From: Heliocidaris tuberculata | Taxonomy: Eukaryota; Echinodermata; Echinoidea; Camarodonta; Echinometridae | Reading direction: 5' to 3' | Assembly (NCBI GenBank): GCA_025618425.1 | Contig: CM046850.1 | Coordinates: 847,819-911,818 of the forward strand | Length of the DNA: 64,000 bases | Shown: positions 1-43,100 of the stretch, one piece after another | Layout of the letters: every line of letters begins with the position of its first letter | Numbering within the stretch: position 1 is the first letter of the stretch | Notes under the pieces: model-generated | Seen by the model: only the letters and a program-made list of their open reading frames with translations | Told to the model about the DNA's origin: nothing | Databases searched by the model: none | Program-made: the position numbers and the translations under genes

Positions 1-1569
1 GTGCTGATAACTTGTTCATTTTACATACAGTAAAGGAGGAAGATGTTTTAAAGGAAATTCTTAAGCTAAAAAATAAGAAATCTATTGGCGTTGATGGTAT
101 ATCGACTTTTATTTTAAAAACATGTGCAAACGAATTAATTGGATCTATAACATACTTAATTAATAAGTCAATCCTAGACGGAAAAGTACCAGCCTCATGG
201 AAGATAGCCAAAATAATTCCTTTACATAAAAAAGGTGACAAATCAAATCCTGATAACTATAGACCAATTTCCCTTCTTCCATGTATCTCAAAAGTTCTTG
301 AAAAAATTGTCCTAAATCAGCTCAATAAGTTCATTGACATAAATAAAGTATTAGTCCCAGAGCAATTCGGATTTAGGGCAAAGCACTCAACCACAACAGC
401 ATTAATGAAAGTAACTGACGACTGGCTCCAAGCCATGGATAATGGGCAATATACCGGGGCAATATACCGGGGCGATATTTATAGATTTACACAAAGCTTT
501 CGATATGGTTAACCACGAGCTACTTTCATTTAAACTCTTACGGCTAGGTATAGTTGGAAAATCTCTAGACTGGTTTACAAGTTATTTATCAAATAGGAAA
601 ATTACAACTTTTATTAATAATGTGTTTTCAGAAGAATACTCGGTTAATAACGGAGTGCCCCAGGGGAGTTTGATCGGGCCAATTCTCTTTGTAATATTTA
701 TTAATGATTTAGCTTCTTTATTTGACAAATGTTCATTTCATTTATATGCAGATGATACCGTTTTATATTTTTCTGATAAAGATCCGAAAGTCGTCGAAAC
801 AGTTTTAAATGACGAACTCGCCAAAGTAATCCAGTGGATGAACAAAAATAAATTGAAATTAAATTGTACAAAAACTGTAGGTATGTTATTTGGAACGAGA
901 CAGATGTTAGCAAGGCACAGTGATTTAGATTTTAAAATTCATAATACAAAAATTCAGAATGTAGACACTGTCAAATATCTTGGTGTTTTTATTGATAAAG
1001 AGCTTAAATGGAATAACCAAATTGAAAAAATGTGCTCAAAAATAGGCAAAATGATAGGTTTTCTTGGAAGACTGAGGTATTTTGTTAATGAATCTATTTT
1101 AAAAATCGTATATTCTTCTACTATTCTTCCCCATTTTGACTACGCAGATATAATTTGGCAGTCTGCCCCTAAGAGATATTTAGATTTGTTACAAAAACTT
1201 CAGAACAGAGCAGGTAGAATCATATTAAAGATAAATCCATATTCCCATACCTCTACTTCTCATATTCATGACATTTTAAAATGGAAGAAATTGAGTGTCC
1301 GTCAAGAAGAACATATGCATATTATGATGTTCAAATTTTCAAATGATCTTGTACCTTTATATATAAAACGCCCTATTGCTATTAAACCAGACATGTATTT
1401 TCTTCTTTCTGTAGGTAACCTCAGTCTCCCCAAACCGAGAACCAATAACTGTAAAAGAACATTCTACTACAGAGGAGCTTCATTATACAACAAATTGCCA
1501 TCAAATACCCGTAGTGCTTTTACAATCCAAACTTTTAAATCCAATTTACAAAATTATTTCAAAGTATAG
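1..1569 (+). pseudogene. LINE reverse transcriptase, frameshifted
   Basis: Two overlapping frames together encode a LINE RT domain that would have copied the element's RNA at its target site. Frame 1 (to about 470) carries the VDGIS and NYRPISLL motifs and FGFRAKHST. Frame 2 (from about 460 to 1569) carries FIDLHKAFD (motif A), NNGVPQGSLIGP (motif B) and LYADDTVLY (catalytic motif C), then the thumb and a C-terminal LPSNTRS-type tail. The frames are separated by a directly visible duplication: the 13-mer caatataccgggg occurs twice in tandem near 448-474. This shifts the frame by +1 just before motif A. Outside this lesion the reading frame is clean, so the copy is probably young. Confidence 0.9.
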
Positions 1570-2790: not shown

Positions 2791-3357
2791 TTACAACAAA
2801 GAGCAGTCACAGCAGCACTTTCCTGTTGTTTGTTCAGGCGATGGCGAGCGCATGATTTCCACGGCACAATCCGTGAATATTTCGTTCACATTTTGTGTGT
2901 TTTTAGCCGAGCTCTCATAGAAGGGCACGCCCCAACGGTTGGCGAGGAGCCACCCTTCGCTGGTGGGTACCACCCGCTCTTGCTCTAAGTCTGCTTTATT
3001 ACCAACAAGTACCATCGGGACTCGATCTGTGCCTTTAACTCTCACAATTTGCTCACGAATGTTCAGAACATCTCCGAAAGATTGTTCACTCGTTACGCTG
3101 TAAACAACCAGAAAACCCTGCCCCTTTCTGGTGTATAAATCCCGCAATGACGAAGACTTTTTCGTATCTTCCACATCAAAAGGCATATCCAAAATTTCTA
3201 AGATCGCCTTGGTGTTTTTAATTTCGATGGCTTTACGATAGCAATCCTCAATCGTTTGGTAGTAATTCTCCACAAAATTTCCTTGGACAAACTGTATTGT
3301 TAGTGAACTTTTGCCGACTCTCCCACTTCCCAAAACAACGACATTATACTCCCTCAT
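2791..3357 (-). CDS. Rap/Ras-like small GTPase with altered switch II
   Basis: A 188-residue, single-exon Ras-family protein closest in style to Rap (MREY start, VVLGSG, FVQGNFVE, TIEDCYRK, GQGF, NEIF). Visible nucleotide-binding motifs are the P-loop GSGRVGKSS (residues 10-18; R at the Ras Gly13 position), the switch I Thr (YYQTIED), NKAD (G4) and ESSAK (G5). The G3/switch II motif DTAGxEQ is replaced: after ILD comes MPFDVEDTKKSSS, about four residues longer, so the Gly60 and residue-61 positions are lost. The C-terminus CCCDCSLL ends in a CaaX box with Leu, predicting geranylgeranylation, with nearby cysteines that could be palmitoylated. Family knowledge says such proteins act as membrane-bound switches. 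I infer impaired GTP hydrolysis here. Lack of introns suggests a retrocopy, but I see no poly-A or flanking repeats. Confidence 0.9.
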   Translation of the reverse strand: MREYNVVVLGSGRVGKSSLTIQFVQGNFVENYYQTIEDCYRKAIEIKNTKAILEILDMPFDVEDTKKSSSLRDLYTRKGQGFLVVYSVTSEQSFGDVLNIREQIVRVKGTDRVPMVLVGNKADLEQERVVPTSEGWLLANRWGVPFYESSAKNTQNVNEIFTDCAVEIMRSPSPEQTTGKCCCDCSLL

Positions 3358-3659
3358 CTTGATAGCTTCGATCGACTTCTGCGCTAAAAGAAAGCTAGAG
3401 TATTTCTATCATAAAAATCTTGCAAAGAAAACTTTCCTGTCTGAAAACTCAAAGCTGTATTTCCAATCTAAATTATGAAAAAGACAAGTGTCGTGATTTT
3501 GATCAAACTCTTCCTCTTTGAAACATCACATGAGTTGTCACGTTTGAGTGTCTTTTCTATACAGTTCATGAGCCCAATTTTTCCTGCAGGAAATCAGTGC
3601 TTGTAGATCGGAAGATACAGCAATGTTTTTGGCCTATTACCGGATTTTTGTAAGAGCAC

Positions 3660-5695: not shown

Positions 5696-6053
5696 TCAAA
5701 AACAGCAAAAACAGCAATCTCGCTTAGCCCCTGTGGTTGGCTTCTGCTCAGGTGCCAACATGCGTACGATTTCCTCAACGCAATTCTCGAATATTGCGTT
5801 CACATTCTGTATGCTCTCAGAGGAGCTCTCATAGAAGGGCACGCCCCAACGGTTTGCGATGATCATCCCTTCGCTCGTGGGTACCTGCCGCTCGTGCTCC
5901 AAGTCTACTTTATTTCCTACAAGTACCGTCGGGACTCGATCAATGTCCTTAATTCTCTAAATTTCCTCACGGATATTGAGGACATCGTCAAAGGATTGTT
6001 CGCTCGTTACGCTGTAAACTACGAGAAAACCCTGCCCATTTCTGATGTACTAG
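5696..6053 (-). pseudogene. 5'-truncated Rap-like GTPase copy
   Basis: The minus strand encodes the C-terminal half of a protein clearly related to the Rap-like GTPase at 2791-3357. Shared segments are GQGFLVVYSVTSEQSF, VLVGNK(V/A)DLE, NRWGVPFYESS and QNVN.IF. Homology starts abruptly near 6053, at the residue after switch II, so the P-loop and switches I and II are absent. An in-frame TAG at 5957-5959 interrupts the rest. ESSAK has become ESSSE, and the tail CCFCCF lacks a correctly spaced CaaX cysteine. I read it as a decayed tandem duplicate; a still-spliced gene with a distant first exon is unlikely because of the stop. Confidence 0.8.
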
Positions 6054-7395: not shown

Positions 7396-7602
7396 CTATA
7401 GATGCCGCGTTTGTGTGATACAGAGAACAAGAAACGCTGTCAATATTGGTAATAAAACGTTCGTATTCACACTTTGATGTCCAGTATTACAATTGTTTCC
7501 CTCGCAGCAGTATGTACATGATCCAAACAAACGACAGCCAGGATTGCATTCTTCGAGGTTATGAACGCATGATCGCTCGATCGACTGACCAGATACGACT
7601 TT
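7396..7602 (-). CDS. LU-protein exon 5 (end of LU3 and GPI signal)
   Basis: Begins after a TTTATTGCAG acceptor in phase 0 and ends at a TAG at 7396-7398. It encodes the second half of LU3 (cysteines through CTYCCEGNNCN), a short polar spacer, and a hydrophobic C-terminal tail without a cytoplasmic domain. Confidence 0.9.
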   Translation of the reverse strand, partial: KVVSGQSIERSCVHNLEECNPGCRLFGSCTYCCEGNNCNTGHQSVNTNVLLPILTAFLVLCITQTRHL

Positions 7603-10600
7603 CTGCAATAAAGAAATGAAGAAGAAAAAAGAAAAAAAATCATTTTGATATACATTTAAAATTTATACAGATGCTTGATAAATGCAATAGCGCAGTCTGT
7701 TTTCGGGCAAACCATGATGAATATAGAGCCCTCATCCATTTGACATCAGTCAGACCCAACTCCGGAAAACCGAGCACAGGTATATACTCCGAAAACGGCG
7801 TATGAATATAGAGCCCTCATCGTTCATTGCGAGGCAGTGTGTACAAAAGGCATGGGGAAAATCTTGCAAAGTCAACCAGCCAACGATATATAATTGTTTA
7901 AAAATAATGCTGCGTGGCAGTTATCTTCAAAATCCTTGAATGATTCGCCATATGAAATGACTTTCAAATGACAAACTTTTGAAATAAATATATCCGCAGC
8001 ATTATTTTTGAAAAATATGTTATCAACAGCAGGTCGACATTGCACGATTTTCCCCATGTTTTTTTACACACTCTCTCGCACTGAACGATGAGGGCTCTAT
8101 ATTCATCTTGCTCCATACGCCGTTTTCGGAGTGTATACCCGTGCTCGGTTTTCCGGAGTTGGGTCTGACTTTGATAATTGTATGAAGAAATAAAGTGAAC
8201 CAACATAAACAATATCGTACTGCTCCCAAACCCACCCCCGATATGACAACGAATCATCATTTAATACCACAGTCACACCGCCAGACCGACCCCACAATGA
8301 ATACAAACCGACCGATTCTTGGCCATTGGTTGCAATGTAATTTTTGGTTCGGTATGTTGTCGGTCTGGCGTCGGTCTTGTTGGTGTGACTGTGGTATAAC
8401 TCATGCACAATCAGACAACAAAGAGTGGAACCGGACACCCCAAAAGACGCGTTAATATAATGACACGAATGGGGGGGGGGGGGGGGGGTTCAGAATAATT
8501 GTGCCAACAAGTCTGCCGAACGTTTTCAAAGAAGACCCCCACAAAAGTGGGTTCATGATTTTGACGACCCGGACGATTAGAGATTTTAAATGGTCATAAT
8601 TATTACACTGCAAAAACCAGGGTGTTAATTCAACACCATCTCGGTATCAATATTAAGCTACACCGGATAAGTGTTAAAACAACATCAGTTAGTATTAAAA
8701 TAAAACCAGTTTGATTCGAAAACTGATGTTGTTTTAACATTTATCTGGTGTAGCCCAATATTGATACCGAGATGATGTTGAATTAACACTTTGGTTTGTG
8801 CAGCTTATAGTTTTCAATTTGACGACAAGGGCAAAATTTCCTTAAAGGTCATGTAAAGTTTTGGTAAGCCCTCAAAAACTGTTCGCCAGATTTCTTCAAT
8901 TTTTGTTGATAAATAGCAAGATACTAGCAATACTAAGACACTGTGAAGATTTCGCCTCCTAAAGTTTAATATTAAACAAATACGAGGAAAAAACTAATTT
9001 ATGTGCCGGGACAGGCACGTAAAATCCCAACAAAGGCAGCATGTGCTATACACTGTACACACACGTGTAAAACCAATAATGAGTAGCTACACACAGTGCA
9101 CACACTCTGTCTCTATGCAAAGCCCCAAGATTGCTGTGCGGGGAGCCGTCGGGGTGGAAGGGTCCTGGCATAATGGCAGTGATCAAGCATTCCTTACAGA
9201 TATTTACACTAAAATTCACCAGAAATCATAGATGGAATACCAAATGATTTCTTACAGACATCTTTTGATACAAGGAGAACAACATGAGACTATATTTAAC
9301 ATGTTTCTTTCCAATTTCCTTTTTGCTACCAATACTGTACATGAGCTTTAAACCAACGATTTTGCTGAAAACAAATTATGGATATCTCTTCAGGAAATAT
9401 GAGTGGATGTGGCACCCCCTTCGTACAAAGACAAAGACGCCCCTGAGAAGGTAAAGTTGTTAAGAGAGAAACACAAATCAATTTGGTAGTATGCCTACCT
9501 TGCAAACGCCTGAACATTGTACAAGTTCGACACCAACACCATTCGGGTCAAACTCAGTGCCGCAAGCACGACTATCCTGAACCTCGAAGGCGTTAGGACT
9601 GTAGTAACATGAGAAACAATCTTGGGTCAGGTTGGACTTCCTTGCGATGACGTCAGGTGGTGCGTCATTACAGAAGGAGCCCTCACAGCAGAATGTACAA
9701 TCCTCCTTATCATCACAATCGTTACAATCGTCTTCATTAAAAGCACAGCCTCGCATTACAGTCGTTTGTTTGGATATGTATACATTCATCTGTATAAAAA
9801 CAAAGAAGAGGAACATTTTGTAATCCTTTTATTTAAAAAAAGGGGGAGTTTATGGGGCCGCTGAAGTGGCAGAGAAGAGTCTATGCAAATTTAATACTGT
9901 TTATATCTGTCATACATGAGCGGCGCCATATCGACTGCGTTTTAACCCACGTTAATCATGCCTATGAAGGCAATCGTTTAACATTTACTCTTTGTACCGT
10001 CGCATCCTTACATGGCTGGCCAATGACCCCGGCAATCCTTGACGCAGTGCGTCAGCACGCTTCGTGTGCATGACATGATGCTGGGGAATACTGAACAATA
10101 ATGATGATAAGCAGTGGAAATTAGAAATTCTTTAGAAATACTTTAGAAAGTAAGCTTCAATTACCTCGCAGGTGGTGTCGCATGTCGTTCTTAATGTCGT
10201 CTCCATCGAGGGATTCACACAGTCGATATCATGGCTGCCGCAGTCGTAGCACCACGTACTGTCTTCGAAGGTCTCTTCGGGCAGGAGATCATTGCAGAGA
10301 TCGTCATCGCAGCAGTGTGTACATGACTCCCAGCCGTCGAGGGGATCAATGAGGCAAATATCGGGGCAGTATTCGTCCTCGTAGCAGCCCCGGGAGATGT
10401 GTATCGTCTCTGGACCTCCCAATGAATTATTCGACACCTTGTAAAAGTCAACATCCCAAGAAAAAAAGATAGATAGGATGGAAATTAGTGTCATCATTAT
10501 AGCTTACAAAATGCATCAAGAATATATATCTGAGAATATAATAAGCCCCAAAGATGTCCTAAAATTCTTAGTTATCATGTTAATGGGGGTATACTTTAGG

Positions 10601-13600
10601 CAGTGTTTAACTGATAATACAGCGGGCGCGAAAATCACCTCCATCCAAGTCTCTCTCACCCCCCCCCCCCCCCCCCCCCCCCCCAGGCCATTTTCAAAAT
10701 TACGAAGCATTCTACAATCTCCACAGACTCGGTCCACGTAAAGTTCTATTTCTCTCGTTTTACTTCTTGCCTTCTCTACCCCACCCCTTCTATATATATC
10801 CGATCCCCTCTTCAATTATGCTCCGTGTTCAAACTTACAAAGCAGGCGTGTTCACACTCGACAATCTTCACGGTGTCCGTCCAAGCTGAGGATAATTCAT
10901 TAGGGTATAAACACGTCTCATCTGTACCGTTGATTGGCCAGAATTCACACTTGTAACATTGCGTGGCGACAGTCAGCTGGGCTACTCCTATGGTCAAGAG
11001 TGAGGATGAATTGATCGTTAACATAATTATGTTTTTCATTCAATTTAACACTTTCTTAAAATTAGATAGCATACGTCAGAGAAAAAAGATTCCTCCTCAG
11101 AGTGAAGGAAAAACAAAACAAAACAGAAAGCCCCAGAAGAGATAGAACATCTTTTATTATTTTATAGTAATATCTATCCAATGCTTATAAGTATGAAATC
11201 TATATATCAGTGCATTCGCCACGTTGCAGCATGCCATCTTTCATTTTGACATGAACAGAAAGCCTGTGTCTGCTCAGCTTCGTTTCATCCGTCAAGGTGA
11301 GGTCGACAGAGTTACAATGAATCACAATACACACCTGTCTACAAACATAACTTACAATACTGCATCATGTTACTAAATACAGTATAGTTTTCAAGTTCAA
11401 GGTAAAACTGATAAAAATATTGAGAAATTATAGCACAGCTACTATTCAAAATACTCTACTGCGCTCTACACAGTATACCATGCAGGGTATACTGTGTAGA
11501 GCCATGGCTTTAGCCGAGCTACCATGATAAGACGCTCAAGCATTTCATCCTACTGAGTACCCATTTTCCAAACCTGGGTTGAGAGTGACAAATGTGTATT
11601 AATGTCTTGCAAAAGGAGGTTATTGCTGTGACAGGGATTCGAACCATTAATCTTGTGATTCACAAAGCGCTGACATATCCTTTAGATCACGACACAATCT
11701 ATTGAGAGCTAGAAGGACGTTAACTCCAAATAAAATTATATAAGTCAACATGGTTAACGCCCTTCTGGTTCTTAATGGACGTAATAAGTGAAGAATTATT
11801 ACATTATTCACCTTAATGTGTGAAAAAGTCATCAGTCGTTTCTATAAGATATAGGTGATATGGCACACATAATAATATACAACCTAAAAATCTGTTGTAA
11901 ATAAATATCTGAAAAGACTTGTCCCTTATTAATCACATAATAACTAGTGTCAAAACCTTTCCTAACTCGCAAAATCTGAAAACTTAAAAATTATATTCTG
12001 ACAAGAGACGTCAGCCTACTTAGCAATACTGTGCCCAGACGAAAAGCACCATCATTATTATCGTTATATATATCTATAATCATATATCTATAATCATAAT
12101 TTTATTACTATTCATTAATTACTATTCTTATCATTTACTATTTCAATTACTTATCATTTACTTTTTGACAATTGTTTTACGATTCAGGAAATCAGCCACT
12201 TCTTACAAGCTACGCTCTTTGGCTCATTTCCTCTCATTTCTCCTCAATTTTTGCTTTGTCTATTACGGAATTTCAATTGTTAAGTTGAGATTTACTATCT
12301 TATGTGTATATTGTTATCTATTTATGTACTATGAATATATGTATTTCCTTTGTATTTTGTTATATTGAGAAATGAGAAATAAATATACTGAACTAAGAAG
12401 AAGAAGAAGAAGAAGAAGAAAAAGAAGAAGAAGAAGAAGAAGAAGAAGAAGAAGAAGAAGAGAGAGAGAGAGAAAGAAAGGGAGAGTGGAAAAGGAACGT
12501 TAAAAAGAAGATGATAGGACTTATTCCGAACCCCCCCCCCTAATCGATGGATAGCTTATTGATTTAATTGATTTAAATTTATAGTATCCAGTAAGACCAA
12601 TACCCCCCCCCCCCCCCCCCCCCATAATGGCTGGGCTCACGCTCTACTATACCCATTTACATACAGCTGTTCCACACGTGTTAGGAAGAAGTTATCGTGT
12701 ATAATTGATATGTAAGTCATGTGCTATGTCATGTAATTGACCGCGTGACTGACCAAATGGTCATTAATCGGGAAGGGACTTGTGTTTTCCCGAAGCTAAC
12801 AATTTGCTTTCAGCATGTTCAGTGTATAGGCCTACTAGTGGTGGTGACTATTTCGCTTTACCCCATTCAAGGAACCTGGAGGCTGTTTCATAAAGCTGTT
12901 CGTAAAGTTACGCATGACTTTACGAATGACTTAAATATGACAAGCCAAATGGGATGCTCAATCACTTTTAACTGCATCAACTAAAGTTGAACTGTGCAGA
13001 TGTAGATTAACATCCATATTATGGCAAACATTTTTAATGCAAAGTATATTTTTTGCAATAATTTAATTGAGGTTATTGGAAATACAGTCACACTTTGTTA
13101 AAACATTTAAGCATAAACTTTGGGCATCCTATCTCGCACTTCATATTCAAGTCGTTCGTAAATCCATGCGTAACTTTACGAACAGCTTTATGAAACACCC
13201 CCTGGATGCATTTTTTCCCACAGGGGTGCTGGGAATCAGTTTTGCCCACATGTCCAACTATTTCCTAACCCTAATCTTATAACCATGCAAGACATACGGG
13301 GTATAGGCTATCTGGGTTACGGTTATCACTAAGAAAAAAAAGGGGGCGGTCATCATATTTCATCTGTGGGGTGTTTTTGACAAGTAGGGAAAAGGGGTTA
13401 TCATAAACGGGTCCATGTCCCCTTCCTCATATTTTGTTAATTTTCTGTTTTTATTAATTCATGTTTTTCTTCATCCATAATCACAAAGCCAAATTCTCAA
13501 GTGCCTATTTTGTGGTGCCATATACTGAGTATCCATAATGATGAAATATATGCCTTCCATACACCGTTCGTGCTTGTTGCATAATCACACACATCATCTT

Positions 13601-16600
13601 TGAAAATACATCTGTATCATAGTTACAATATGACCTTGAATAAGATTTGGGTTGTAGTAAAAACAAAGTTATTTCGATGCATGGATTAATCATCTGCTTT
13701 TTTTCTCTATATTGTGCCAGAAAAAATGAGAAAAGATAGCACACGTGTCTATTAGTAATGCTTATTTATATGGTATGAGAGAGATATTTGCACGAACACT
13801 ACAGTCATTAAATATAGAAACGGATTGACGTCTTTGGCTGAGTCTTTTCTGATCATTTTACAAAGTATTCATTTGTGCTGAACATCACGTTAGTGCCAGC
13901 AGTGCTCTTATCTTCTATTCAATACATGTTATTATCTTTGCCATGGCTAAAAAAATTATATAAAAATTTTGAAGAAACAAAAAAACAAAAAAAACGAGTG
14001 ATCACTGACGAGAGAAAATAGAGTGAAAATCACTCTCATTTTTATAGAGAGCACTCTAAAATAAATCGGTATACATTCCTAAACAAATGATCACTGACGT
14101 GACTCCGGGGGGGGGGGGGGGGGGGTGAAATAGAGTGAAATTTCACTCTTTTTTTTAGAGAGAGTGTAAAGTTATGAAAAGACAATGTAATGATCAACAT
14201 GATATTCATTACATTGTTTTTTTAATTCCCAGACAATAATGTAAGCGTAATTAAACGTGATAATAGATATCGTCATAATATCATTGTTTAAAAATTACAG
14301 TTCATATCGACACAATCCACTCAATGTAAATCCATCGTATTCAGGATGAGAGAGGATACTATAATTATATCAGTTTCATTGACCCAAAATGTTGTCCATT
14401 ACAGCTCTTGGCCAATGTCCAGTGGATCAAGAGTTATTGAATTGACGCCGTCCATTCATTAAATGAATCGAAACTCTGATAATTGTTGTCACTTTCAATG
14501 GAATTGTCATCCCATTATTTGGGCATAGTTGTCAAAACATTACCGTCAGATTTGGCTGACATTCACGATGTTTATGTGTAAAAAGTAAAATCGAACTAAA
14601 AAGCAAAGAAATATGAATGAAAGCAACCAGCTTAATCTAAGTGTACAAGCAATACAAATAAGAAAAGAAATTGTCCTCACACTTTACAGGGACTTTTCCA
14701 ACCCTAATATTTCTATAGTCCATTTCATGGATCCGAAAGAGGGAACGCCTGCATTTTTTTTAATTTTTTTTTTGTTTTTGTTTACTATTAGATGCTGGTT
14801 TTCATATTTTTCTTACTAAGGGAAGGGGCGGCGACGGCAGCCCTCGACCCTCTATATTCACCTATGTAGTACATCATCATTGATCCTATACATTTACAGC
14901 ATACGCCTACTGGAAGAAATCGAATACATAACGTAACCTTGTTACCTTCAATAATGTAAGAATCATGCAGGTTCACGAGTTTTTCATAATACGGATCATG
15001 GAGCCCAAGCAAATTATAAGAGGGGAGGGTGGGGGCAACTGCCCCATGGCCCAATTTATTACGACGATGCAAGCTAGGCATATGGTATGGAATGCAATAA
15101 AGATAAAACAAAAAACAAAACAAAACAAAAAAATCGTATGAAATTCGATGTCAGTTGAATGGAAGTGTCACTTAAACGAACAGATATCATGACACATTGT
15201 TTTGAATGGGAATCTATTTTTAGATTATGCGTTGCTTCCTCTGCGATTTATGTCTGTTCTCATCCGCAGCCTGTCATTCAAAACAACTCATCATTGAACC
15301 ATTATGGGTTGTCTCATTCAAAATAATGATTCTTGCTATAGCTGGGTTTTCAAACTCGATGACACATATCAAGTGTTATGAGGATTCGTGTAGAAATGGA
15401 AACATTACTATATACAGACTCGTTGTCATGATATACATCTCTTTCGATTTCTGACTAAAATTTCATAACACAGATCACTATCAGCGCAGTAAACCAACTA
15501 CACAGAAGAAGTTAAAAAAAAAATCAGTTGCATTCCCAATAGTATCTTAAATTAAAAATTGATATTATTTTTACGAGGACAACATCGTGAAACATAAATA
15601 TTAAAAAAGGGATAGAGCCATAATAAAATGTTAATTCATGTCAGTTTGTTAAATAAATTAGAACAGTATCATATTTTGATGGTCATGTTAAAAGGTTGGT
15701 ATTTATCATTATTCCAATCCATCTTTTTCACAAAAGTAAGCTGAAACTATCTTAATGTCAACTTATTTCGGTCAAGACATTTTCAAGTAGAAATAAAGTT
15801 AACAAAGTGAAACAAGATATTTTTTCAAACAGAAAAACAAAAATATAGACATATCCTTTTTCTAACCATGCACTTGTTCCGTACATCAAGAATTTATCTT
15901 TCAAAACGATATGAAATTTTCTTGGGTGTGGATATCTCCTTGGCGCCAAAACTGTCACAAGAGTTGTATCCGTAACTTTTGACATATTACTCATATTCCG
16001 GTTACATCTTCTCAAGTTGTTCTTGTAACCTTTTAAGGTAGGTTGCGTTGAACTATATGGCCTTTGGGCACAAAAATAGTAAGATTCTAGACTATTTCGT
16101 CCAGTCGTCTACTTCTTTGAAAAAAAAAAAATTAGGAATGCAGGTTTATACCCATCTCTTCAAACTTAAATACAGTTACAATGCATTTTCTTGATTTTAA
16201 GAGATATAAAAGAAACTTTTAAAACCGGACATATCAAGGAGCAATAATTAGAATCCGAACCATGGCATTTCACAATGTTATTCTTTATTTATAATTCCAG
16301 GTGTATGGCTTGGAATCTAAAGGAACAACATGCGTTTACTTTTCTACACATTCAGTTGTTTGATGTACGATTATGTCGCATTTGAAATAATATAAAGGTC
16401 ACACTTTTCATGACCAGCGCAATTTTTCATATATAATTCGATCGTTGCGGAAAGCAAATAAACTTCAGCTAAAGGAAACAAGAGATTATTCTCGGCATCT
16501 TGGACATAAAAATGGCAGATTTAAGCCAAATTCTTTTAACTTTGCTTGAAAACGTTTCAGTCCTCTACATCCTTCTTATATCATAACCATCCATTTAAAT

Positions 16601-16858
16601 CCAGCTAAGTAATTAGCAAGCCATTTCCCTTTGACAGAACTGTGAGGAAGTAGTTTATAAAGTACCAGTCATCGTCACTATAGCTACGTAATTAGGGGAA
16701 TATCGCAAACCACATGCACATTTTACTCGCGCTAAGGGTAAAGTTCGGAAATCTAGGAGTTCATGCTGGAGTTAATGTTACACAGATTGCTTACCAAATA
16801 ACATGATTCCTGCAAAGATTAAGACTGCTCCCGCGCAGTTCCCAGATTTTGAGTCCAT
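7396..16858 (-). CDS. Three-LU-domain (Ly6/uPAR-type) GPI-anchored protein, five exons
   Basis: Proposed exons in transcript order: 16858-16795, 10987-10839, 10437-10165, 9789-9499, 7602-7396. All have GT-AG borders and matching phases, and join to 984 nt (327 residues plus stop). Residues 1 to about 29 form a signal peptide (core AGAVLIFAGIMLFG). LU domain 1 runs from CYKC (residue 32) to CCDDDLCN; LU2 from WCYDC (about 134) to CCEGSFCN; LU3 from DCFSC (about 219) to CCEGNNCN. Each domain has the Cys-rich start and the CC-x(4)-CN end of the family. The C-terminus is hydrophobic (LLPILTAFLVLC), as expected of a GPI-attachment signal. Each domain is split once near its middle, as in vertebrate uPAR-family genes. 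Family roles are cell-surface binding; the ligand is unknown. Exons 2-5 are strong; linking the distant first exon is supported by phase and the completed signal peptide. Confidence 0.85.
7749..8169. mobile_element. Inverted-repeat element (MITE-like) in LU-protein intron 4
   Basis: Both ends read GTCAGACCCAACTCCGGAAA on opposite strands, and the match extends for more than 100 bp per arm (including CCGAAAACGGCGTATG and GAGCCCTCATCGTTCA). A further short copy of the arm sequence (gaatatagagccctcatc) lies just outside at about 7719-7737. There is no coding capacity; the reading frames seen here are arm translations. Confidence 0.85.
8261..8400. mobile_element. Short palindromic element
   Basis: A 140-bp hairpin whose ends match as ATACCACAGTCACACC on both strands, followed inward by CAGACCGAC-type sequence. 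It sits about 90 bp from the preceding inverted-repeat element, in the same intron. Confidence 0.8.
8606..8804. mobile_element. Palindromic MITE with CACTGCAAAAACCAG-type ends
   Basis: Left arm (CTGCAAAAACCAGGGTGTTA, then CAACACCATCTCGGTATCAA) and right arm are reverse complements over about 85 bp, around a short centre rich in AAAACC. No ORF. A G tract of 18 lies upstream at 8471-8488. Confidence 0.85.
9499..9789 (-). CDS. LU-protein exon 4 (end of LU2, start of LU3)
   Basis: Ninety-seven codons between a TTTTTATACAG acceptor and a GTAGGC donor, phase 0 at both ends. It holds the acidic Cys-rich second half of LU2 (DDCNDCDDKEDC, CCEGSFCND), a linker with an NLT glycosylation sequon, and the first half of LU3 (DCFSCYY ... 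CSGVC). Confidence 0.9.
10165..10437 (-). CDS. LU-protein exon 3 (end of LU1, start of LU2)
   Basis: Ninety-one codons between a TTTTACAAG acceptor and a GTAATT donor, phase 0 at both ends. It completes LU1 (GCYEDEYC ... CTHCCDDDLCND) and starts LU2 (WCYDCGSHDIDC). The codons for VSNNS include a possible N-glycosylation site. Confidence 0.9.
10659..10684. repeat. Poly-C tract
   Basis: Twenty-six consecutive C residues in LU-protein intron 2. Other homopolymer G/C tracts are at 12531-12540, 12603-12622, 14107-14125, 18369-18384 and 37543-37565. Confidence 0.95.
10839..10987 (-). CDS. LU-protein exon 2 (start of LU1)
   Basis: Starts after TTGACCATAG with two bases that complete a Gly codon begun in exon 1, and ends TGC TTT before GTAAGT. 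It supplies the end of the signal peptide (VAQLTVA) and the first half of LU1 (QCYKCEFWP, NGT sequon, CEHACF). An upstream in-frame ATG at 11037-11039 would give an alternative start, but the signal peptide is better with exon 1. Confidence 0.88.
11463..11700 (-). mobile_element. tRNA-derived SINE remnant
   Basis: The minus strand carries a Pol III B-box-like GGTTCGAATCCC near 11638-11650 and body sequence of the kind seen in the SINE at 50392-50755 (AACCCAGG...GGGTACTCAGTAGGATG). It then has a TAGCTCGGCTAAAGCC block, also found at 29540-29570. At the far end, 11463-11502 is a perfect 17-bp inverted repeat (GCTCTACACAGTATACC) with a 6-nt loop. Confidence 0.7.
12398..12478. repeat. AAG microsatellite
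   Basis: A near-perfect (AAG)n array running into GA repeats. It directly follows gaaataaatatactgaact, which resembles a retroelement 3' end, so the array may be an expanded tail. Confidence 0.9.
12875..13205. mobile_element. Inverted-repeat MITE (TTTCATAAAGCTGTTCGTAA family)
   Basis: Ends match on opposite strands: TTTCATAAAGCTGTTCGTAA followed by AGTTACGCATG on the left, with the same sequence on the minus strand at the right, over about 55 bp per arm. The centre of about 220 bp is AT-rich and noncoding. Confidence 0.85.
13996..14175. repeat. Two diverged copies of an AGAGTGAAA...TTCACTCT repeat
   Basis: The order gatcactgacg, then aatagagtgaaaatcactct, then tttttatagagag occurs at about 13998-14060 and again at about 14088-14170, the second interrupted by a G tract. 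Each copy contains a small hairpin (agagtgaaa / tttcactct). Confidence 0.7.
16795..16858 (-). CDS. LU-protein exon 1 (signal peptide)
   Basis: The minus-strand ATG at 16856-16858 (context AAAATGG, a good start) opens 21 codons plus one base, ending in GTAAGC. It encodes a short polar N-terminus and a hydrophobic core, AGAVLIFAGIMLF. The single overhanging G fits the two-base start of the exon at 10987 to make Gly, giving a normal signal peptide ahead of LU1. The main alternative is that it is the first exon of a different secreted protein. Confidence 0.7.
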
Positions 16859-19696: not shown

Positions 19697-22600
19697 ATGG
19701 CTGACCAGCAAAAAATAAAAGTTTTGAGGGAAAAAATAAGCACTTGGGATCAAAGAACAACACCTATGGCACCGCTGACGGAAAGACAAAAAGACAGTTA
19801 CATGGATCTGACATCACATGCATCAAACAGACCATTACCAATCGAGGTAAGCATATTCGTTTCACTGGTGGGCTGGGCTGCTGAAGTGAATTGTGTTGCC
19901 CCATTCGTAGACGTTCGTGTAAGCAATTTCAGACCAATCAATAAATAAAGCTTGCATTATCAATTCACTTTAATTCAGTCATGACAGTGCTAACTTCAAA
20001 ATTATGCAGTTAAAGTAGTAGGCCGTAGGTAATTGAACCCACAGGATATGTAATAAGACTATGGAATATATTACTTGACCGATGTTTGGCAAAGAACGGA
20101 AGAAAGGAAATACTTCAAATAGAGCACTCATAGCGACTTTACTATACTTCGTGTGTAGACTCTAGGCAGTCATCCACCTCGACACTTTCAAAACACCACT
20201 GCACAAAAGTCACCAACATTCACTCATAATCGGCATTTAATTTACAAGAAACGACACCAACATATTCATGAAATACAATAAATTCAACTCACCGATGTTG
20301 GAAAAGATAATTTCGAAAATGAAATCCGTAATTTACTGTCACTTCTGGCGAAACGGGGTATCGCAAGTCATGATGTACAATTCCTGATCGCCGCGAGCGC
20401 TGACATCTCCCGCTAAAAAATTCGGTCGTTAAAAGTTCGGTTCCTATCGCGCACACGTAAGTCCCGATTTTCCGTGTGTGCGATCGTAGAGATCGATGTG
20501 CACGCGATACCGAGTTTCGTTGTGGACAAAATTTTATTGGCCGATTTAGTCTAAAAACATCGGCACCATGAAAACAACATGCGATCGCAAAAAAAATTGG
20601 CGGGGATTTCTTAGGTTTTGGACATGATTTTGACTTTGGATTTTGCTGGAAATATCAGAAGTTCTTCCTAACGGCCATTTAAGGTAGGAAAGAGATTTTA
20701 AAGCGCTGAAATTGAAAGGAAGTATTTTAAACATTTATCTTACTTTTCCCCCCATACCTTAAGTACATGCGATAGAAAATGACTAGTATTTTTGCATTCG
20801 TCCCGCGTAGTGGTCAGTATGACCACTATACGTGGTGTGAAATAGAGTCACTCATGGGCCCTTGCCTATGTGGGACTGTGTCCAACATTCACTTTTGCAG
20901 CAGTAAAAAAAAAAGACAACAAAATTGCTCTAAGCAAGATTTAATATTCTTAAATTTGCTAGATTACCTGATTTATGGACTCTTCCACTCTTACTGTGCC
21001 ACAAATTAAGGGATTCAGAATTGAAAGTGAAATTTTAAATAATTATTTTCCTCTCCTGTATGAATGATCTAGCCTGGAAAAGGGCCTTTTGATACAAACA
21101 ATAGCTATTGAAGCCTATTCACCCGTAAAAGAGCTAGTCTGAGTACAAGGTTATCTTCAGATAAGCTTGTACATGTATAAGTGACTTTAACTTGGTCTTG
21201 AATTGAAGAATGAATTGGACTGATGCATGTGAAGTGGAATTTGGAATGGATTTTTATTTTTTTAAAACAAGGCAAAGAAAATGAAAGGTGAAACTATGGC
21301 GATCATGTTACTTTGATTATGTTTCTCCCATGTAGCTACCATTAGTAGAAGCAGGCAGCTTTTCTCAGCAGCTATCACTGGTGTCCACTCCAAGTCTCTC
21401 TCACAGCGGAGATTCTCTGGCTGAGGGCTTTGCATCGCTCGGGATGAAGGATGAGAAAATTGAAAATGCACAACAGGTAGGGAAGGCTGACTACATCTCT
21501 TTTTATTTTCTTGTTTTTCTTTCTTGAAGATTAAAAGATCTGTCTTCTTTCTCTTAATTTTTCTTTCCTCTGAATCTGATTCCTTATGTTCCCTTCATTT
21601 TAGAAAAAAATGATGATGCAGTTTTTTTTTTGCTCTTTTAATATAGGATCTACATGTATATATATCACCAAAAAAATTGTCTGTCCTCTTTTCACTTGTT
21701 ATTTTGGCCTGCTCTGAATCACAAGAAGTAAGCATGTAGCTTACAGCCTTACTAAAGCTAAATTTCTTTCTGCTCAAATTTGTATTTTTTCACCAAGAAC
21801 CACCTTCCTTTAAAGGGGAAGTTCATCCTACCCTGATATCAACTTGGTTTAAAAAAAAAACAGAAAAATTAAAGAAGCAGTTCAATTAAAGTTTGAGCAA
21901 AATCTGATAAGAAATAAGAGAGTTATGATATCAGGGTGCACTTTCCCTGTAAATTAGATGTGACATACCCACATTTTTATTTCTTGATTTTTCATGAAAA
22001 TCATCTAGTTCTTTGACTGGTTCAACAAAGTTGAGAGTCAGATGGAGCAGGAAGAAGAGTTGTGTTACAGGTTAGTTTTCTCAAAGTCTCATTTCAATGT
22101 AACTTGTGCACTATTTTTAATTCAATACTTCATGCAATTAGTGCTTTGTTATGTTTTAATTATATACAAATTTAGTGCAGTAGTTGAAAATTTAGGATTT
22201 GTTATTTAGTATTTCAGTTTGAACCCCAGTCCACAGATTGCATCAGTGCATTTGATTTAAATAATGCTTCCTTATTTTTAGCCCGGATATATTGGGGATG
22301 GGAAAATGGATCTTCTTGGTATTGTACCATATCACAAACGTGAATTTTCTGTAGCAGTACATTTATGTTCATGTTACAATTTATTTCATTTGTATCAACT
22401 ATCATTAATATACAGTCAAACCTGCTCTAGCGACCACCTGTCTATAAAGACTATAATTTTTGTTTCCCTTGAAGAGTGTTTCTCATTGAAACATGTATTA
22501 AAGGAACCTGTACATAAAGACAGCCTGCTCATAAAGACTGCTTTTCTTGTCTCCCTTGAGTGGTTTTTATATACAGGTTTCACTGTTATTATTTCATTTC

Positions 22601-25600
22601 ATGTATTCAGATCTTACTGTGATCAGCTGAGTCAATACAAAGTACAATGTGACCTTGTGATGGAGGAAGTCTCTACAGCCTTGGATCAACTCAAAGACCT
22701 CAAACAGCAATACGTCTTAGTTGCTACAAAAACCAATGCTCTCCATGAGGCTTGTGAGCAGTCTATGGCAGACCAGGTAATTGAGAACCAAATAGACTAA
22801 AAAAAAAGTACAGACAGACAAACATGCAGATATTGCAGACATTCAAACAACAATCATTTACAAAGATACACACCTGCAACACATCTCAGTCACAACCAAG
22901 ACAAATGCTCTTATATATATTTCATATCATATGCAAATCCTAGCAGTTGAACTTTGAGATTGATCCAGATCATTAGCAACAAGACAGGCCCCTATTTCTG
23001 AGAAAAAAACAACAACAAACAGACAGTAAGAGATAGAGATACAGATTTTTATTCAAACCAAATCATAATTATAATGGACCATCTCATCCAATACTGATTT
23101 GGGTTCACTGGACATGAATATTGTTTGTAACTAAGCTGTCACTTTAACAAGACGTATTTGCTTGATCACAATGTAATCTATGTACAGAGTATGTAACATC
23201 TTGAATGATTTCTCTTTCTTGGATCATCCAGACAATGTTAGTGAATAAGGCTGAAGCCATCAGCTGTAAGCTTGCCTACTTCAATGAACTAGAGAGGATA
23301 AATCAGGTAAGATTTTTTAAAAAAACTGATTTATAACAAAGTATTGAGAAAATGTCTACGTTAAAACTTTAAAATGTTAATGAAAAAGTGGAAAGATTTT
23401 CAAAAAAAGATTTATGACAAAGTATTGAGAAGATGTTCACGTTAAAACTTAAAAATGTTAATGAAAAAGTGGAAAGGTTCATGAATATCTACCAAAGTTC
23501 TCTGTGAGTTGTGATAAGCTATGTCTAGGTTGAAATTTGCACCCCATTAGGTGAATTTGAGAAGGTGTTTGAACACTAGATCAGTTTATCAAAGAAATTA
23601 AGTTCTTTTTTTGTTGGTTATTTCACTTTTCAACAATTTGTTTATGATGAAATATTGGTTTAACAAAATGTTTTTCATTTTCTTAAGAAGAGCATAGCTG
23701 AAGGTGAATTCTTATATTTGTAAATTATTACAAGTGCCTTCACCTTCATTTTTTCCCCCTCTTATTTTTAAACTGTTATAGGAAATAGGGTTGATCGACT
23801 CATTTTGAAATATTCCTAATGTTATTTTGTTATTTCTTGTTGTCGTAGAAACTGAGCTCGCCAACGTTTGCAGTCACCAATGAATCGTTTGTTCCTCTCC
23901 TCTCCAAGTTAGATGAATGTATTGCATATATTATTGGAAATGTAAGTATAATAATCTATCTCTTCTGCTATCCTCATGTTTCTTTTAATTATTTCTTCAA
24001 ACATTACTCTCTGTCAATTTCCTTGAGGTTTTGAGTTTTTGTCTTGGCTGTATTTCATCCCAGTACTGGTTCAATTTTCAATTCACTGTAATGCAATCAT
24101 TTGAATTTATTTTATTTAATCATGGAACTTACATCAGCCAGGGGATGTTTTACCAAAGGCCGTGTAATAAAGACATTAAATCATATGACACAAGATAAAA
24201 ATACATGGTATAAGAATACAAAATTACTAAGATAAAATTGGCAAAGATAAATTCATATTAAATGACTAAAAACAACAACAATTAAATAAATCCATAAACC
24301 CTCCCCCAAAACCCACTCAAAATGATAATAACAAAAGTTAGACAAGTACTGGTTCTATTGGGTCTATTGAATTCAATTTAAGAAATGCAGTTGCAATGTG
24401 TACATGTCATTAATTATAGTTAAGTTCAATTATGTGAACATTACTGTAGACATCATGGATTAAATGACTTGTTATTTGAGAGAATATCTGTATTTCTAAT
24501 CTAACACTAAAATGTCCCTTTCAATATATTTCTCATTCAGCCCCAGTACAAGGAGTCAGAGCTGTTCCAGGCCAGGTTCAAGCAATGTCTGAGTAAAGCA
24601 TTAACTCTTATCAAAGCTGCAGTCTTTACAATTTTGAATGGAGCTACACAACAGGTTGTTCCTAAGGTATGTACATGTATAATTGATTGGTTGTTTGAAT
24701 TATTGATTAGTTGAGAAACCCTACTGTGTTTACCATATGTAATGGAGCAACACAAAAAAATTGGTCCCTAAGATATATATTAGTGACTGATTGATTTACT
24801 AATTGATAGATTTGAGTGATAAATTTAATGATAAATAATTGTTAATCAACAGCTTCTGTCTATCTGTTACTGACTGATGGGTTGGTTGATTTTTGTTATT
24901 GTTGGGGTATCAAAACTTCAACTAAATGAACATGCTTGTAAATAACTAGCAAGGGGACCTACCTACACGCCATGGCCGTAAAGAGAGTTCTGGGAAAAGA
25001 AAAAAAATTGTCAGCTTTCTCATTCTTTATATGTTAGTTGTGAAGATTATCATAGTAGAAATGCCCACTGAAAAGGATTCCTCTTCAAATGCCCTCACAT
25101 TCAACATATGACAAGAAACAGCTGAAATGTTCGGGTCAAACATTTGTGTGTAGTACCATATACACATTTCTGTGTGCAGTGCATGTGACTCTCAGCAGGA
25201 TTGAGTCAATTTCTTATCATTTTGGTGATTCCAAAACCTTACAGCATACACCAATTCTTATTTGCTATATAATCAACCTTTCCCAATTGCTTTGAGACAG
25301 TTTCTTTCACAATTCAATTGCATGACCAGAACTCAACTTTATTTCTACATGTACTATTTAACATGTAAAATGATATAATGCACAATCAGTCCCAAGTGAT
25401 ATGGTCTCCAAATTGGCAAAGAAAAGTATCAACAAAAAAATTCTCTTAGATGATAATTGCTAGTTTCATGCTGTGTATTCATTGTGAATATCGTACCCAC
25501 ACTATAAACTGCTTCACTTTCTAGTACAGTGAAACCTGTATATAAAGACCGCTCAAGGGAGACAAAAAAAGCGGTCTTTATGAGCAGATGGTCTTTATGT

Positions 25601-40100: not shown

Positions 40101-43100
40101 TTTATTCACTTGGATACATGACCCCTGGTTGAACTTTGGTGAAGGCTGTCGTCTTAAATCTTTGTGGTTGCATTGCGTCACTCAATGACTTGGCATTGTA
40201 GTCTTAGTATCTTTCAATGTGAGACACGGAGGCTATTATTTTGGATTGATTATCATGGAGTAGCTTCATCAATTACATGAACTTTCTTCGAAGGGATGTG
40301 CCTGATGTCAGCAATGTTTTACTGTCTTTCAAAACTGCTCTTCTTGGTGACGGCAATATGAGGTACTCCTCAATTGATCAGTCAGATTAAAGAAATGGAG
40401 ATTTCTGAGTTCAGCAGAGGTATGGTGATACCTGTATTCTGTTATTCAAGGAAGATTTAAATTGTAATTCAGCCTCTTGGTAAAAAAAAAGGATTAATCT
40501 GTTGTGTCTTTCATTGGATTTGAAATTGCTGCAAACTCTTGCCCTCAAGCATTTGATGAATGGATGTGAATCAGAAGAACTTACATGTAGATCAAAAGGC
40601 AACAATGAAATATATACTGTCCATGGCTGCATATTGTGTTAATTAACTTAAGTCAGTTGAAATCATTCTGGATAACAATACAGACCGATTATTCATTGCC
40701 AAGATGAGAATGTTGTAATAACCCCTGTTGTACTGCTCTTGTGTTACCAATTGGAGGATTGGTTCCTCCCCCAGCTTAGAGTACGCCTCCACCCACTTTT
40801 CCCCGAGCTGAACTAACAATTGATTTTGACAATGTCTGTTAGCACCAATACATCGCTCCCACCTGCAAGAGATCCGTGCATCTCCGACCTAGAAGCTAAA
40901 GTGATCTCAGCCATTGTCTCATTGCTAACGGTGATCATCTTCATCGGAAACATCACTGTCATTGTCGTTATCTTAAGGACACAAGCCAAGCAGCACTCTG
41001 GCTACATCTATACATTGAGCCTGGCTGTAGCTGACATCTTTGTTGGATTGATGTGTCTGGTTCATGTTGGGATTTACTTTGCTGACGTCACATCGACGAC
41101 TTGGTGTCTTTGGGAAGTCGTCATGTTTATCTCATCGTGTAGTGCTAGTGTGTCCAGTATCCTCTGTATAGCATTTGATCGTTACCTCGCTATCACCAAA
41201 CCTATCATATACACTACCCGCATTAGGGAACATACAGGCTATGCAAAAACTGCTGTGGTAATAATCTGGATTTTTTCGATATTGTTTGGTTCCCTGCCAC
41301 TTCTCGGTTGGCGGACATTTAGCTTTGTTCCTTGCAGACATTGTTGGTTCGCAAACATCCTTCCGGGAAGTTTTGTTGTCACGCTTTTCGTAACACAGTT
41401 CATCATCCCTGTCATAATTCTTATCTTCTTCTACGGTAGCATGCTTCATGTGTCACTACGCCATACAAACCAGATCGCCGATCTCGCGGGTAGCTTCCAT
41501 CCGCCGTCTCGCTGGGAGCCGCGGAAACGAGCCGTGATCACGCTCTCGCTCATCATGGGTTGTTTCTTTGTGACGTGGGGGCCGTTCTTTGTGACTCTCT
41601 TCACTCACATCATCACCAAGAACCCTGAATTCAAGATTGTCGTTCACTCTTACTTCTTTATCCTTGCCATAAGCAACTCTTGTTTGAACCCACTGGTCTA
41701 CGCCTACTGGAACAGAGAATTCAGGAATATATTCAGCAAGTGGTTTGTTCAAGAAGGAAGAAAGATAAGGCATTCCTTGACGAGTAGAAGAAAAACGATT
41801 ACATTCATTTCAGGGAATTTTGGCATTCCATCTCAATCACCATCTACTCAGTAGTCTGTAAACTTTGGGAAGCTGATGTTTGCGTGAAATATCTTTCTGA
41901 CACCTGAATACAGTGAATGGTTAGTCGAACCTTTTTTGAAAGAAACAAGCTATATTTGGATACAGTAACAGATTTTTATTTATTTATTTTTTTGGTGTCA
42001 TTAGAGCTGGTTGTTATATGGTTAGGAATGTTTTTTAGTAGTCTTCACAGCAATTAATATAATTTAGATTGGTGGTGCATTATATTTTTCCTCTTCTTTA
42101 AAGTAAATATTTGTGATGGGGTAATCTGATGCACATATATTGAAATTGTGACAATGAATGTATGTTATTCTGTTGATGAGGATGTCTGAGATACATGTAT
42201 GTTGAGTTGGGATCTATGGAAAATGCGTGTTATAACTGCAAAATCAAACAGTGCTCATTACTCAGTGGGTGAAACTTACATGTATGTGATTTGTTGTATG
42301 AAGTTTACCATAAATAGTTTAAAAATTTAGAGTTTTATCCTAGTCAGACTGAAATTCAATTTACTGTAAGACCAGAAGATGATTTTGGCAACCTCTTTAA
42401 GCTCTCTTACAACTCAATTATTTTGTCTCTTTCACACAGACTCTGTTTGTCCTTCAGGAAATCATCTTTTCTGATACTTGGTTTTTTCTCCCTTTTGGAA
42501 ATTTTGTTGTGACATACATGTATGTGTAATAGTTATTGACCCAGGATGTTTTGCTTGCCACTTCACTAAAGTCCTTTGGTGAGACATTAATCTACATTTG
42601 CCACACTTGACCTGGTGAAGTATGGGGGTACCAGGTAGGATTATTCCTTGAAATGCACTGTGCGCTGATAAGGGTTGTCTGAGCATATATAATGGTTTCT
42701 AAAGCTCTTTGAAAGCTCAAAAGGATGTTATAGAGGGTTGCCATGCTGGAGGACATAACAATAAAAACCTGTGCACTAGACCATGACAACAATGGCTTTT
42801 CATAGTCTGATGCACAGATTTTTATTGTTATGTCCTTTAGCATGGCTGCCGTGAGAATCCTCTGTATCATAATGTAATATGCGCTATACAAGAACGGAAT
42901 TTATTATAGCTTTCAGTGTTTGCATGAGGAATCTCCACCTTTATTCAGTAATCCGCTTCCTACATGTAATCATGTTTTTAATGGTTTTATATCTTGATAC
43001 AGGTGAATCTACTTCTTTCTGCATCTCCGTAAACCATACCATGCACCAAGACCATCCCAGCGATATGATACTGCAGATCTTCCTCATTTCAATCATAGCT

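What the first reader, a model, noticed from the sequence alone, without database searches (positions are those of the whole stretch)
7396..16858. Complete three-LU-domain, probably GPI-anchored, uPAR-like protein gene
Five exons with compatible phases join exactly to a signal peptide, three cysteine-rich LU domains and a hydrophobic C-terminal tail. Three tandem LU domains plus a GPI signal is the uPAR layout, and each domain is split once in the middle as in vertebrate LU genes. I know of no named invertebrate orthologue. It could be an independently built multi-LU receptor or a lineage-specific recognition protein.
Basis: partly seen in the sequence, partly recalled or inferred. Interest (0 to 1): 0.75.

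Follow-up and report, generated by a model that had tools for sequence, protein, structure and literature searches.

The report
Sea urchin three-finger cell-surface protein gene
This stretch of sea urchin DNA holds a complete, well conserved gene for a probable cell-surface protein made of three linked three-finger modules, laid out like the human urokinase receptor but assembled differently and apparently separately, and its job is unknown.

Summary
On the minus strand, 16858-7396, five GT-AG exons join into one 327-residue frame: signal peptide, three 12-cysteine LU domains, hydrophobic tail. Full-length uncharacterized relatives exist in Lytechinus pictus (87% identity over 93%) and Diadema setosum (76% over 93%). 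Both ends vary while domains and linkers are kept, as expected for a signal peptide and a GPI signal. The uPAR reading is only partly right. Introns lie within domains, in phase 0, one residue after Cys5, and none lies between domains: exons 3 and 4 each encode the end of one LU domain and the start of the next. Six paralogous loci in this genome hold one such exon plus a last exon, four of them with the first exon half too. Published work describes a repeated exon set per LU domain in vertebrates and a uPAR lineage beginning at the lungfish-tetrapod ancestor. So this is probably an independent three-LU receptor. Hits were echinoid only, but its slow change argues against a fast-evolving recognition protein. 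No usable fold model was obtained (pLDDT 33); ligand and expression are unknown. My functional guess is a GPI-anchored co-receptor or receptor regulator.

The parts
16795..16858 (-). Exon 1: start codon and signal peptide core (residues 1-21 plus one base)
   Evidence: Open frame, GT donor, intron phase 1; aligns with the N-terminus of the Diadema protein, 14 of 22 residues
10839..10987 (-). Exon 2: end of signal peptide and first half of LU domain 1 (Cys1-Cys5)
   Evidence: AG acceptor, GT donor, phase 0 exit; conserved in P0001 and P0002
10165..10437 (-). Exon 3: boundary-crossing, phase 0-0; second half of LU domain 1, linker, first half of LU domain 2
   Evidence: 273 nt = 91 codons; leaving it out keeps the frame (in silico)
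9499..9789 (-). Exon 4: boundary-crossing, phase 0-0; second half of LU domain 2, linker with N-glycosylation motif, first half of LU domain 3
   Evidence: matches paralogue exons on C13 and C5, best E 2.3e-8
7396..7602 (-). Exon 5: second half of LU domain 3, probable GPI-attachment signal, stop
   Evidence: resembles last exons on C12, best 51% over query residues 258-316, E 3.7e-5
10988..11039 (-). Possible alternative start directly upstream of exon 2 (open frame from an ATG)
   Evidence: Weak: the L. pictus N-terminus aligns here at E 5.6e-6, but most of that match is exon 2 itself; upstream of it 4 of 15 residues agree. Use not shown

Best explanation
The gene encodes an echinoid protein of the Ly6/uPAR (LU, three-finger) superfamily. 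A signal peptide sends it to the cell surface, three 12-cysteine LU domains form the outside part, and a C-terminal signal is replaced by a GPI anchor. It probably arose within echinoderms, separately from vertebrate uPAR, by adding a phase-0 exon that spans a domain boundary, so that each added exon adds one domain. Shown here: the gene model by sequence, domain order, cysteine pattern, relatives, paralogues and intron phases. Inferred: the three-finger fold, GPI anchoring and separate origin. Guessed (about 0.35): it works as a slow-evolving co-receptor or cis regulator of another membrane protein such as an integrin, or captures a basic ligand with its acidic first two domains (3 basic and 19 acidic residues in D1, 4 and 16 in D2, 5 and 9 in D3). 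The confidence below is for the molecule and its separate origin, not for the functional guess.
For: One clean five-exon frame with exact phases. Full-length relatives in L. pictus and D. setosum. Identity to L. pictus / D. setosum: signal region 29/61%, D1 89/70, D1-D2 linker 82/82, D2 92/83, D2-D3 linker 100/93, D3 92/85, tail 52/24, so the parts expected to be cut off vary and the rest is kept. Three N-glycosylation motifs (41, 74, 215) are present in both relatives (read from the alignment). A profile of 13 LU domains from this family, paralogues included, matched 68 distinct PDB sequences at E 10 or better, best E 0.0029. I saw 60 of the 68: all read as three-finger toxins, activin/BMP receptor ectodomains or Ly6 proteins by name, three of them with generic names that I take as such (9avv, 9mir, 5mg9). 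One paralogue's second domain passes the Pfam cut-off for the QVR (Quiver) LU family, 27.5 against 27.3 bits, E 6.5e-6, and exon 4 is homologous to the boundary exons of that gene group. Six loci hold a boundary exon and a last exon; a first-half exon was seen in four of the six. In 12 of 12 mid-domain donors that I placed, the cut lies one residue after Cys5; four of these came from a scan that required a GT near that point, so they are not independent. PMC6337849 (passages) confines the uPAR lineage to the lungfish-tetrapod ancestor. PMC11595613 (section part) found 48 LU proteins in a starfish, three with two LU domains and the rest with one.
Against: No Pfam family matches the whole protein at E 1, and D2 and D3 alone match none at E 10; D1 gives only sub-threshold matches. 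A profile of only window and Diadema domains gave no significant PDB match (9 hits, best E 0.77). The PDB matches mostly cover the second half of the domain. Both AlphaFold runs failed (mean pLDDT 32.6 and 33.3), so the fold is not confirmed. The tail ends in polar residues in this species and L. pictus, which is not ideal for a GPI signal, though the Diadema tail ends hydrophobic. The origin of the extra exon is unresolved: exons 3 and 4 group together against the two-LU exons with only 48/76 support. Nothing here shows expression, partner or function.
Confidence: 0.85

Rival explanations
1. A true invertebrate orthologue of uPAR that binds a urokinase-like protease.
For: Same domain count and probable GPI layout.
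Against: No inter-domain introns and a different intron position; all three domains, D1 included, have 12 cysteines, whereas D1 of mammalian multi-LU proteins lacks the 7-8 bond (PMC6600238 passages); the published uPAR lineage starts at the lungfish-tetrapod ancestor (PMC6337849 passages); no uPAR chain among PDB matches: 1 match at E 1 by single sequence, a viral spike at E 0.063, 9 rows, 60 rows seen of 68.
Confidence: 0.03
2. A fast-evolving, lineage-specific immune or gamete recognition protein.
For: Hits were echinoid only. Two-LU paralogues are duplicated and less conserved. D1 is the least kept domain against Diadema (70%).
Against: Exon-3-like hits were found only at this locus in the searches made. 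From residue 22 on the protein is about 87% identical to L. pictus and 74% to Diadema (258 and 220 of 296, summed), against 59-71% for one two-LU paralogue and its four database relatives; the pairs are not shown to be strict orthologues.
Confidence: 0.1
3. A regulator of ion channels or nicotinic receptors, like Quiver/Sleepless or Lynx proteins.
For: One paralogue's second domain passes the QVR Pfam cut-off; most studied mammalian three-finger proteins of brain or epithelium target receptors such as nicotinic ones (PMC9410279 passages).
Against: The QVR match is in a paralogue; the window's own D2 and D3 give no match at E 10. A three-domain acidic protein is unlike the single-domain channel modulators that I recall.
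Confidence: 0.2
4. Secreted, or held by a transmembrane segment with a short tail, rather than GPI-anchored.
For: The hydrophobic stretch is followed by polar or basic residues in this species and L. pictus.
Against: The hydrophobic run is short (about 14 residues), the tail is weakly conserved (52% and 24%) and the Diadema tail ends hydrophobic.
Confidence: 0.12
5. A gene-model artefact: separate one-domain genes or a pseudogene.
For: No transcript data; one weak acceptor (E3); the first exon is not agreed by both relatives.
Against: Boundary-crossing exons cannot be split into one-domain genes; no stops inside; full-length relatives in two other echinoids.
Confidence: 0.03

Closest known systems
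uPAR (PLAUR) and other vertebrate multi-LU proteins (C4.4A/LYPD3, Haldisin/LYPD5, TEX101, CD177)
   Same: Signal peptide, LU domains in tandem, GPI anchor (predicted here); three domains as in uPAR
   Different: Vertebrate genes keep the generic exon structure for each domain and mammalian D1 lacks the 7-8 disulfide (PMC6600238 passages); here there are no introns between domains, splits are phase 0 just after Cys5, and every domain has 12 cysteines
Echinoid two-LU proteins (S. purpuratus LOC100888648, L. variegatus LOC121426416 and LOC121427652, L. pictus LOC135156371; uncharacterized)
   Same: The window genome's copies have a boundary-crossing phase-0 exon homologous to exon 4; similar linker region; GPI-like tail
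   Different: Two domains; the second has 10 cysteines in the copy counted; lower identity between species
Starfish Lystar5 and other echinoderm three-finger proteins
   Same: Echinoderm LU proteins; Lystar5 has six disulfides by mass and a predicted GPI signal (PMC9410279 passages) and lies on the surface of coelomocytes (PMC11595613)
   Different: Lystar5 has one LU domain; its sequence relation to this gene was not tested
Quiver/Sleepless (Pfam QVR)
   Same: LU family; one two-LU paralogue's second domain passes the cut-off
   Different: Single-domain insect proteins (recalled); the window gene's own D2 and D3 do not match at E 10

Membership tests
LU (Ly6/uPAR) domain | Ten plesiotypic cysteines with CC-x4-C-N at the end | tested here: met
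   All 3 domains carry the order plus one extra pair, assigned to loop 3 by position; the bonds themselves are not testable here
LU (Ly6/uPAR) domain | Recognised by a family profile | tested here: inconclusive
   No Pfam hit over the cut-off for the window's domains; one paralogue domain passes QVR; the 60 seen of 68 PDB matches of the family profile are three-finger proteins by name
LU (Ly6/uPAR) domain | Three-finger fold | tested here: inconclusive
   AlphaFold pLDDT 32.6 and 33.3
LU (Ly6/uPAR) domain | Signal-peptide exon followed by a domain encoded by two exons | tested here: met
   One split per domain, signal exon ends in phase 1; but position and phase of the split differ from the published vertebrate form
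[quoted passage not shown]
   No inter-domain introns; exons 3 and 4 cross boundaries (feature)
uPAR (PLAUR) orthologue | D1 without the 7-8 disulfide (mammalian and reptilian form) | tested here: not met
   D1 has 12 cysteines (feature)
uPAR (PLAUR) orthologue | Binds urokinase and vitronectin | not testable with these tools
   Needs protein work
GPI-anchored protein | C-terminal hydrophobic signal behind a small-residue attachment site | tested here: inconclusive
   Hydropathy and inspection only, no GPI predictor: N298-T-G, spacer, then a run of about 14 hydrophobic residues and a polar end; the tail is weakly conserved

The most novel reading that the evidence does not exclude
In echinoids the LU domain is handled genetically as half-domains. 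Because the mid-domain introns that I read lie one residue after Cys5 in phase 0, any first half can join any second half. Each boundary-crossing exon is then a portable unit that adds exactly one domain, and leaving out exon 3, exon 4 or both gives two-, two- or one-LU proteins with hybrid but cysteine-complete domains (checked in silico). The three-LU gene would be one product of such a system, which may also work by alternative splicing, giving receptors of different length and mixed specificity from one locus.
Probability: 0.2. Interest if true: 0.65.

Novelty: new variant of a known kind. Interest (0 to 1): 0.45.

Why it matters
Published work on chordates puts three-LU genes of the uPAR lineage late, at the lungfish-tetrapod ancestor (PMC6337849 passages), and describes the LU domain as an exon set generally flanked by phase-1 introns (PMC6600238). 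A conserved echinoid three-LU gene built from boundary-crossing exons suggests that the three-domain layout arose more than once and by a different exon route. It also offers a testable probable surface protein in a group where surface markers are said to be largely unavailable (PMC13409769, abstract in the listing).

Tried and rejected
Pfam PF00021 search of the genome: no match, and none in the 14 controls, so uninformative. AlphaFold with 2 and with 7 rows: both failed; no fold search was run on such models. Tree of boundary exons to decide how exons 3 and 4 arose: unresolved (48/76); half-domain tree dominated by long branches. Alignment A6 for a deeper model: set aside because last exons were misplaced. 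A7, which held exons from genome loci, was not sent for folding because the tool's list of permitted sources did not clearly include them. Two weak, repeated first-half hits on C13 (E about 0.8) were rejected after reading their frames; many other hits above E 0.1 were left as chance. A first-half candidate on C12 at 3142247 was not followed, so it is not in the 12 donors counted. Wider protein search: only echinoid hits (2 of 450 candidates, 2 of 851, 6 of 1150); the method needs shared 5-residue words, so absence elsewhere is not shown. Literature searches: 3 of 3 papers listed; 7 of 7; 4 of 4; 20 of 20; 5 of 6; 10 of 12; 30 of 36; 12 of 21. No title or abstract start in those listings, and no passage seen in the six papers opened, describes an invertebrate three-LU gene or boundary-crossing LU exons; most subscription journals are not held.
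Full report
What is there. The finding's coordinates are right. On the minus strand five exons (16858-16795, 10987-10839, 10437-10165, 9789-9499, 7602-7396) join with GT-AG borders and phases 1, 0, 0, 0 into 984 nt, 327 residues and one stop. The protein has a hydrophobic N-terminus, three cysteine-rich domains (about residues 32-121, 133-204, 220-298) and a hydrophobic tail. In all six frames of the 64 kb the motif CC-x4-CN occurs only three times, all here. The stricter C-x2-CC-x4-CN averages 0.02 in 100 first-order Markov simulations.

Is it a real gene. A search of 5.8 billion proteins returned two clusters among 450 candidates: an uncharacterized L. pictus protein (329 aa, 7 members) and one from D. 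setosum (327 aa, 3 members), at 87% and 76% identity over 93% of the query. The alignment runs through the three junctions of the mature protein. Taxonomy places one species in Echinacea and the other in Diadematoida, so, if they are orthologues, the gene predates that split. I infer from the identities that the window is from an echinoid nearer to Lytechinus than to Diadema; no call names the species. The database proteins may themselves be predictions. Exon 1 agrees with the Diadema N-terminus (14 of 22 residues). The L. pictus N-terminus differs; it aligns just upstream of and into exon 2, but only 4 of 15 residues agree upstream of exon 2, so an alternative start is only a hint.

What the domains are. 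Each domain has 12 cysteines in the order C-x2-C ... C ... C-x3-C ... C-x5/6-C-x2/3-C ... C-x2-CC-x4-C. I read ten as the published LU set (bonds 1-5, 2-3, 4-6, 7-8, 9-10; PMC6600238, section on consensus structures read) and two as an extra pair in loop 3; the bonds are inferred. No Pfam family covers the whole protein at E 1, and D2 and D3 alone have no hit at E 10. A profile of six domains (window and Diadema) matched 9 PDB sequences at E 10 or better, best 0.77, all three-finger proteins by name. A profile of 13 domains including paralogues matched 68; I saw 60, all of which read as three-finger toxins, activin/BMP receptor ectodomains or Ly6 proteins (three with generic names), best E 0.0029, mostly over the second half of the domain. 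One two-LU paralogue's second domain passes the QVR cut-off (27.5 against 27.3 bits); the S. purpuratus one does not (20.9 bits). AlphaFold failed twice. The LU assignment is strong by pattern, supported by profile, and unproven by structure.

The ends. Identity to L. pictus / Diadema is 29/61% in the signal region and 52/24% in the tail, but 89/70, 92/83 and 92/85% in D1, D2, D3, and 82/82 and 100/93% in the two linkers. That contrast fits two cleaved ends. Three N-glycosylation motifs, one in the D2-D3 linker, are present in all three proteins. D1 and D2 are strongly acidic (3 basic and 19 acidic residues; 4 and 16). No signal-peptide or GPI predictor was run.

How the gene is built. Exons 3 and 4 each hold the second half of one domain and the first half of the next, and both are phase 0-0. 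Protein searches of the same genome found the same kind of exon at six other loci: three on C13 near 8.59-8.62 Mb, two on C13 near 13.39-13.46 Mb and one on C5 near 50.68 Mb. Each of the six also has a last exon. The first-half exon was seen in four of the six, so four two-LU genes are complete apart from the signal exon and two are inferred. A one-LU gene on C15 has the same phase-0 split. In 12 of 12 mid-domain donors that I placed, the cut lies one residue after Cys5; four of these come from a scan that asked for a GT near that point. Relatives of the two-LU genes exist in S. purpuratus, L. variegatus and L. pictus. Exon 4 resembles the two-LU boundary exons (best E 2.3e-8), exon 5 resembles last exons on C12 (51%, E 3.7e-5), and exon 3 weakly resembles C15 (40%, E 0.005). 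Whether the gene grew by duplication of one exon or by joining pieces is unresolved.

Comparison with uPAR. [quoted passage not shown] The uPAR lineage is placed at the lungfish-tetrapod ancestor, with one odd three-LU gene in a teleost explained as a recent duplication (PMC6337849, passages); that study covered chordates. A starfish census of 48 LU proteins names three with two LU domains and says the rest have one (PMC11595613, section part). Hence the layout is uPAR-like, but orthology is not supported.

How it may work. Starfish LU proteins are mostly predicted to be GPI-anchored; Lystar5 was shown on coelomocytes and pulled down an integrin alpha-8-like protein, a target its authors call in need of further study (PMC11595613, abstract, section parts and passages). 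With conserved domains and linkers, an acidic outer part and a probable GPI anchor, my best guess is a co-receptor or cis regulator of a conserved membrane partner, or a capture receptor for a basic ligand. This is inference (about 0.35). From residue 22 on, identity is 258 of 296 to L. pictus and 220 of 296 to Diadema (summed), against 59-71% for one two-LU paralogue and its four database relatives. Those pairs are not shown to be strict orthologues, but the slow change argues against an arms-race recognition protein.

Limits. One genome was searched, exon by exon; counts are lower bounds. No RNA, no GPI or signal predictor, no structure. Absence in other echinoderm classes is not shown. Papers opened: PMC11595613, PMC6337849, PMC6600238, PMC9410279, PMC13409769, PMC12236594, each as sections or passages, none in full.

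Noticed in passing
window 2791-3405 (-) and 5696-5956 (-): A single-exon Ras-family ORF ending in a cysteine-rich C-terminus, and a C-terminal fragment of a second, similar Ras ORF a few kb away (Pfam Ras, E 1.6e-44 and 9.2e-14); perhaps a tandem or retro copy pair.
   Followed up: partly
window 415-1569 (+): Reverse-transcriptase ORF (RVT_1, E 1.5e-27), probably from a retroelement of LINE type.
   Followed up: no
window 40817-41854 (+): Single-exon rhodopsin-type GPCR ORF (7tm_1, E 3.2e-41).
   Followed up: no
window 22282-22800 (+): ORF with the N-terminal domain of Golgi complex subunit COG3 (E 2.4e-9), a possible synteny anchor.
   Followed up: no
window 8608-8803, 12881-13200, 7748-8170: Long foldback repeats (arms 47-83 nt, 77-96% complementary) in introns 1 and 4 of the gene, like small inverted-repeat transposons.
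   Followed up: no
G000 C13 near 13.39-13.40 and 13.446-13.455 Mb; C5 near 50.68 Mb: Near-identical copies of one two-LU gene's exons, two on C13 and one near the end of C5: recent segmental duplication or an assembly effect.
   Followed up: no
G000 C12 3.01-3.36 Mb: Four last-exon hits like exon 5, suggesting a cluster of small LU genes; three of them read.
   Followed up: partly
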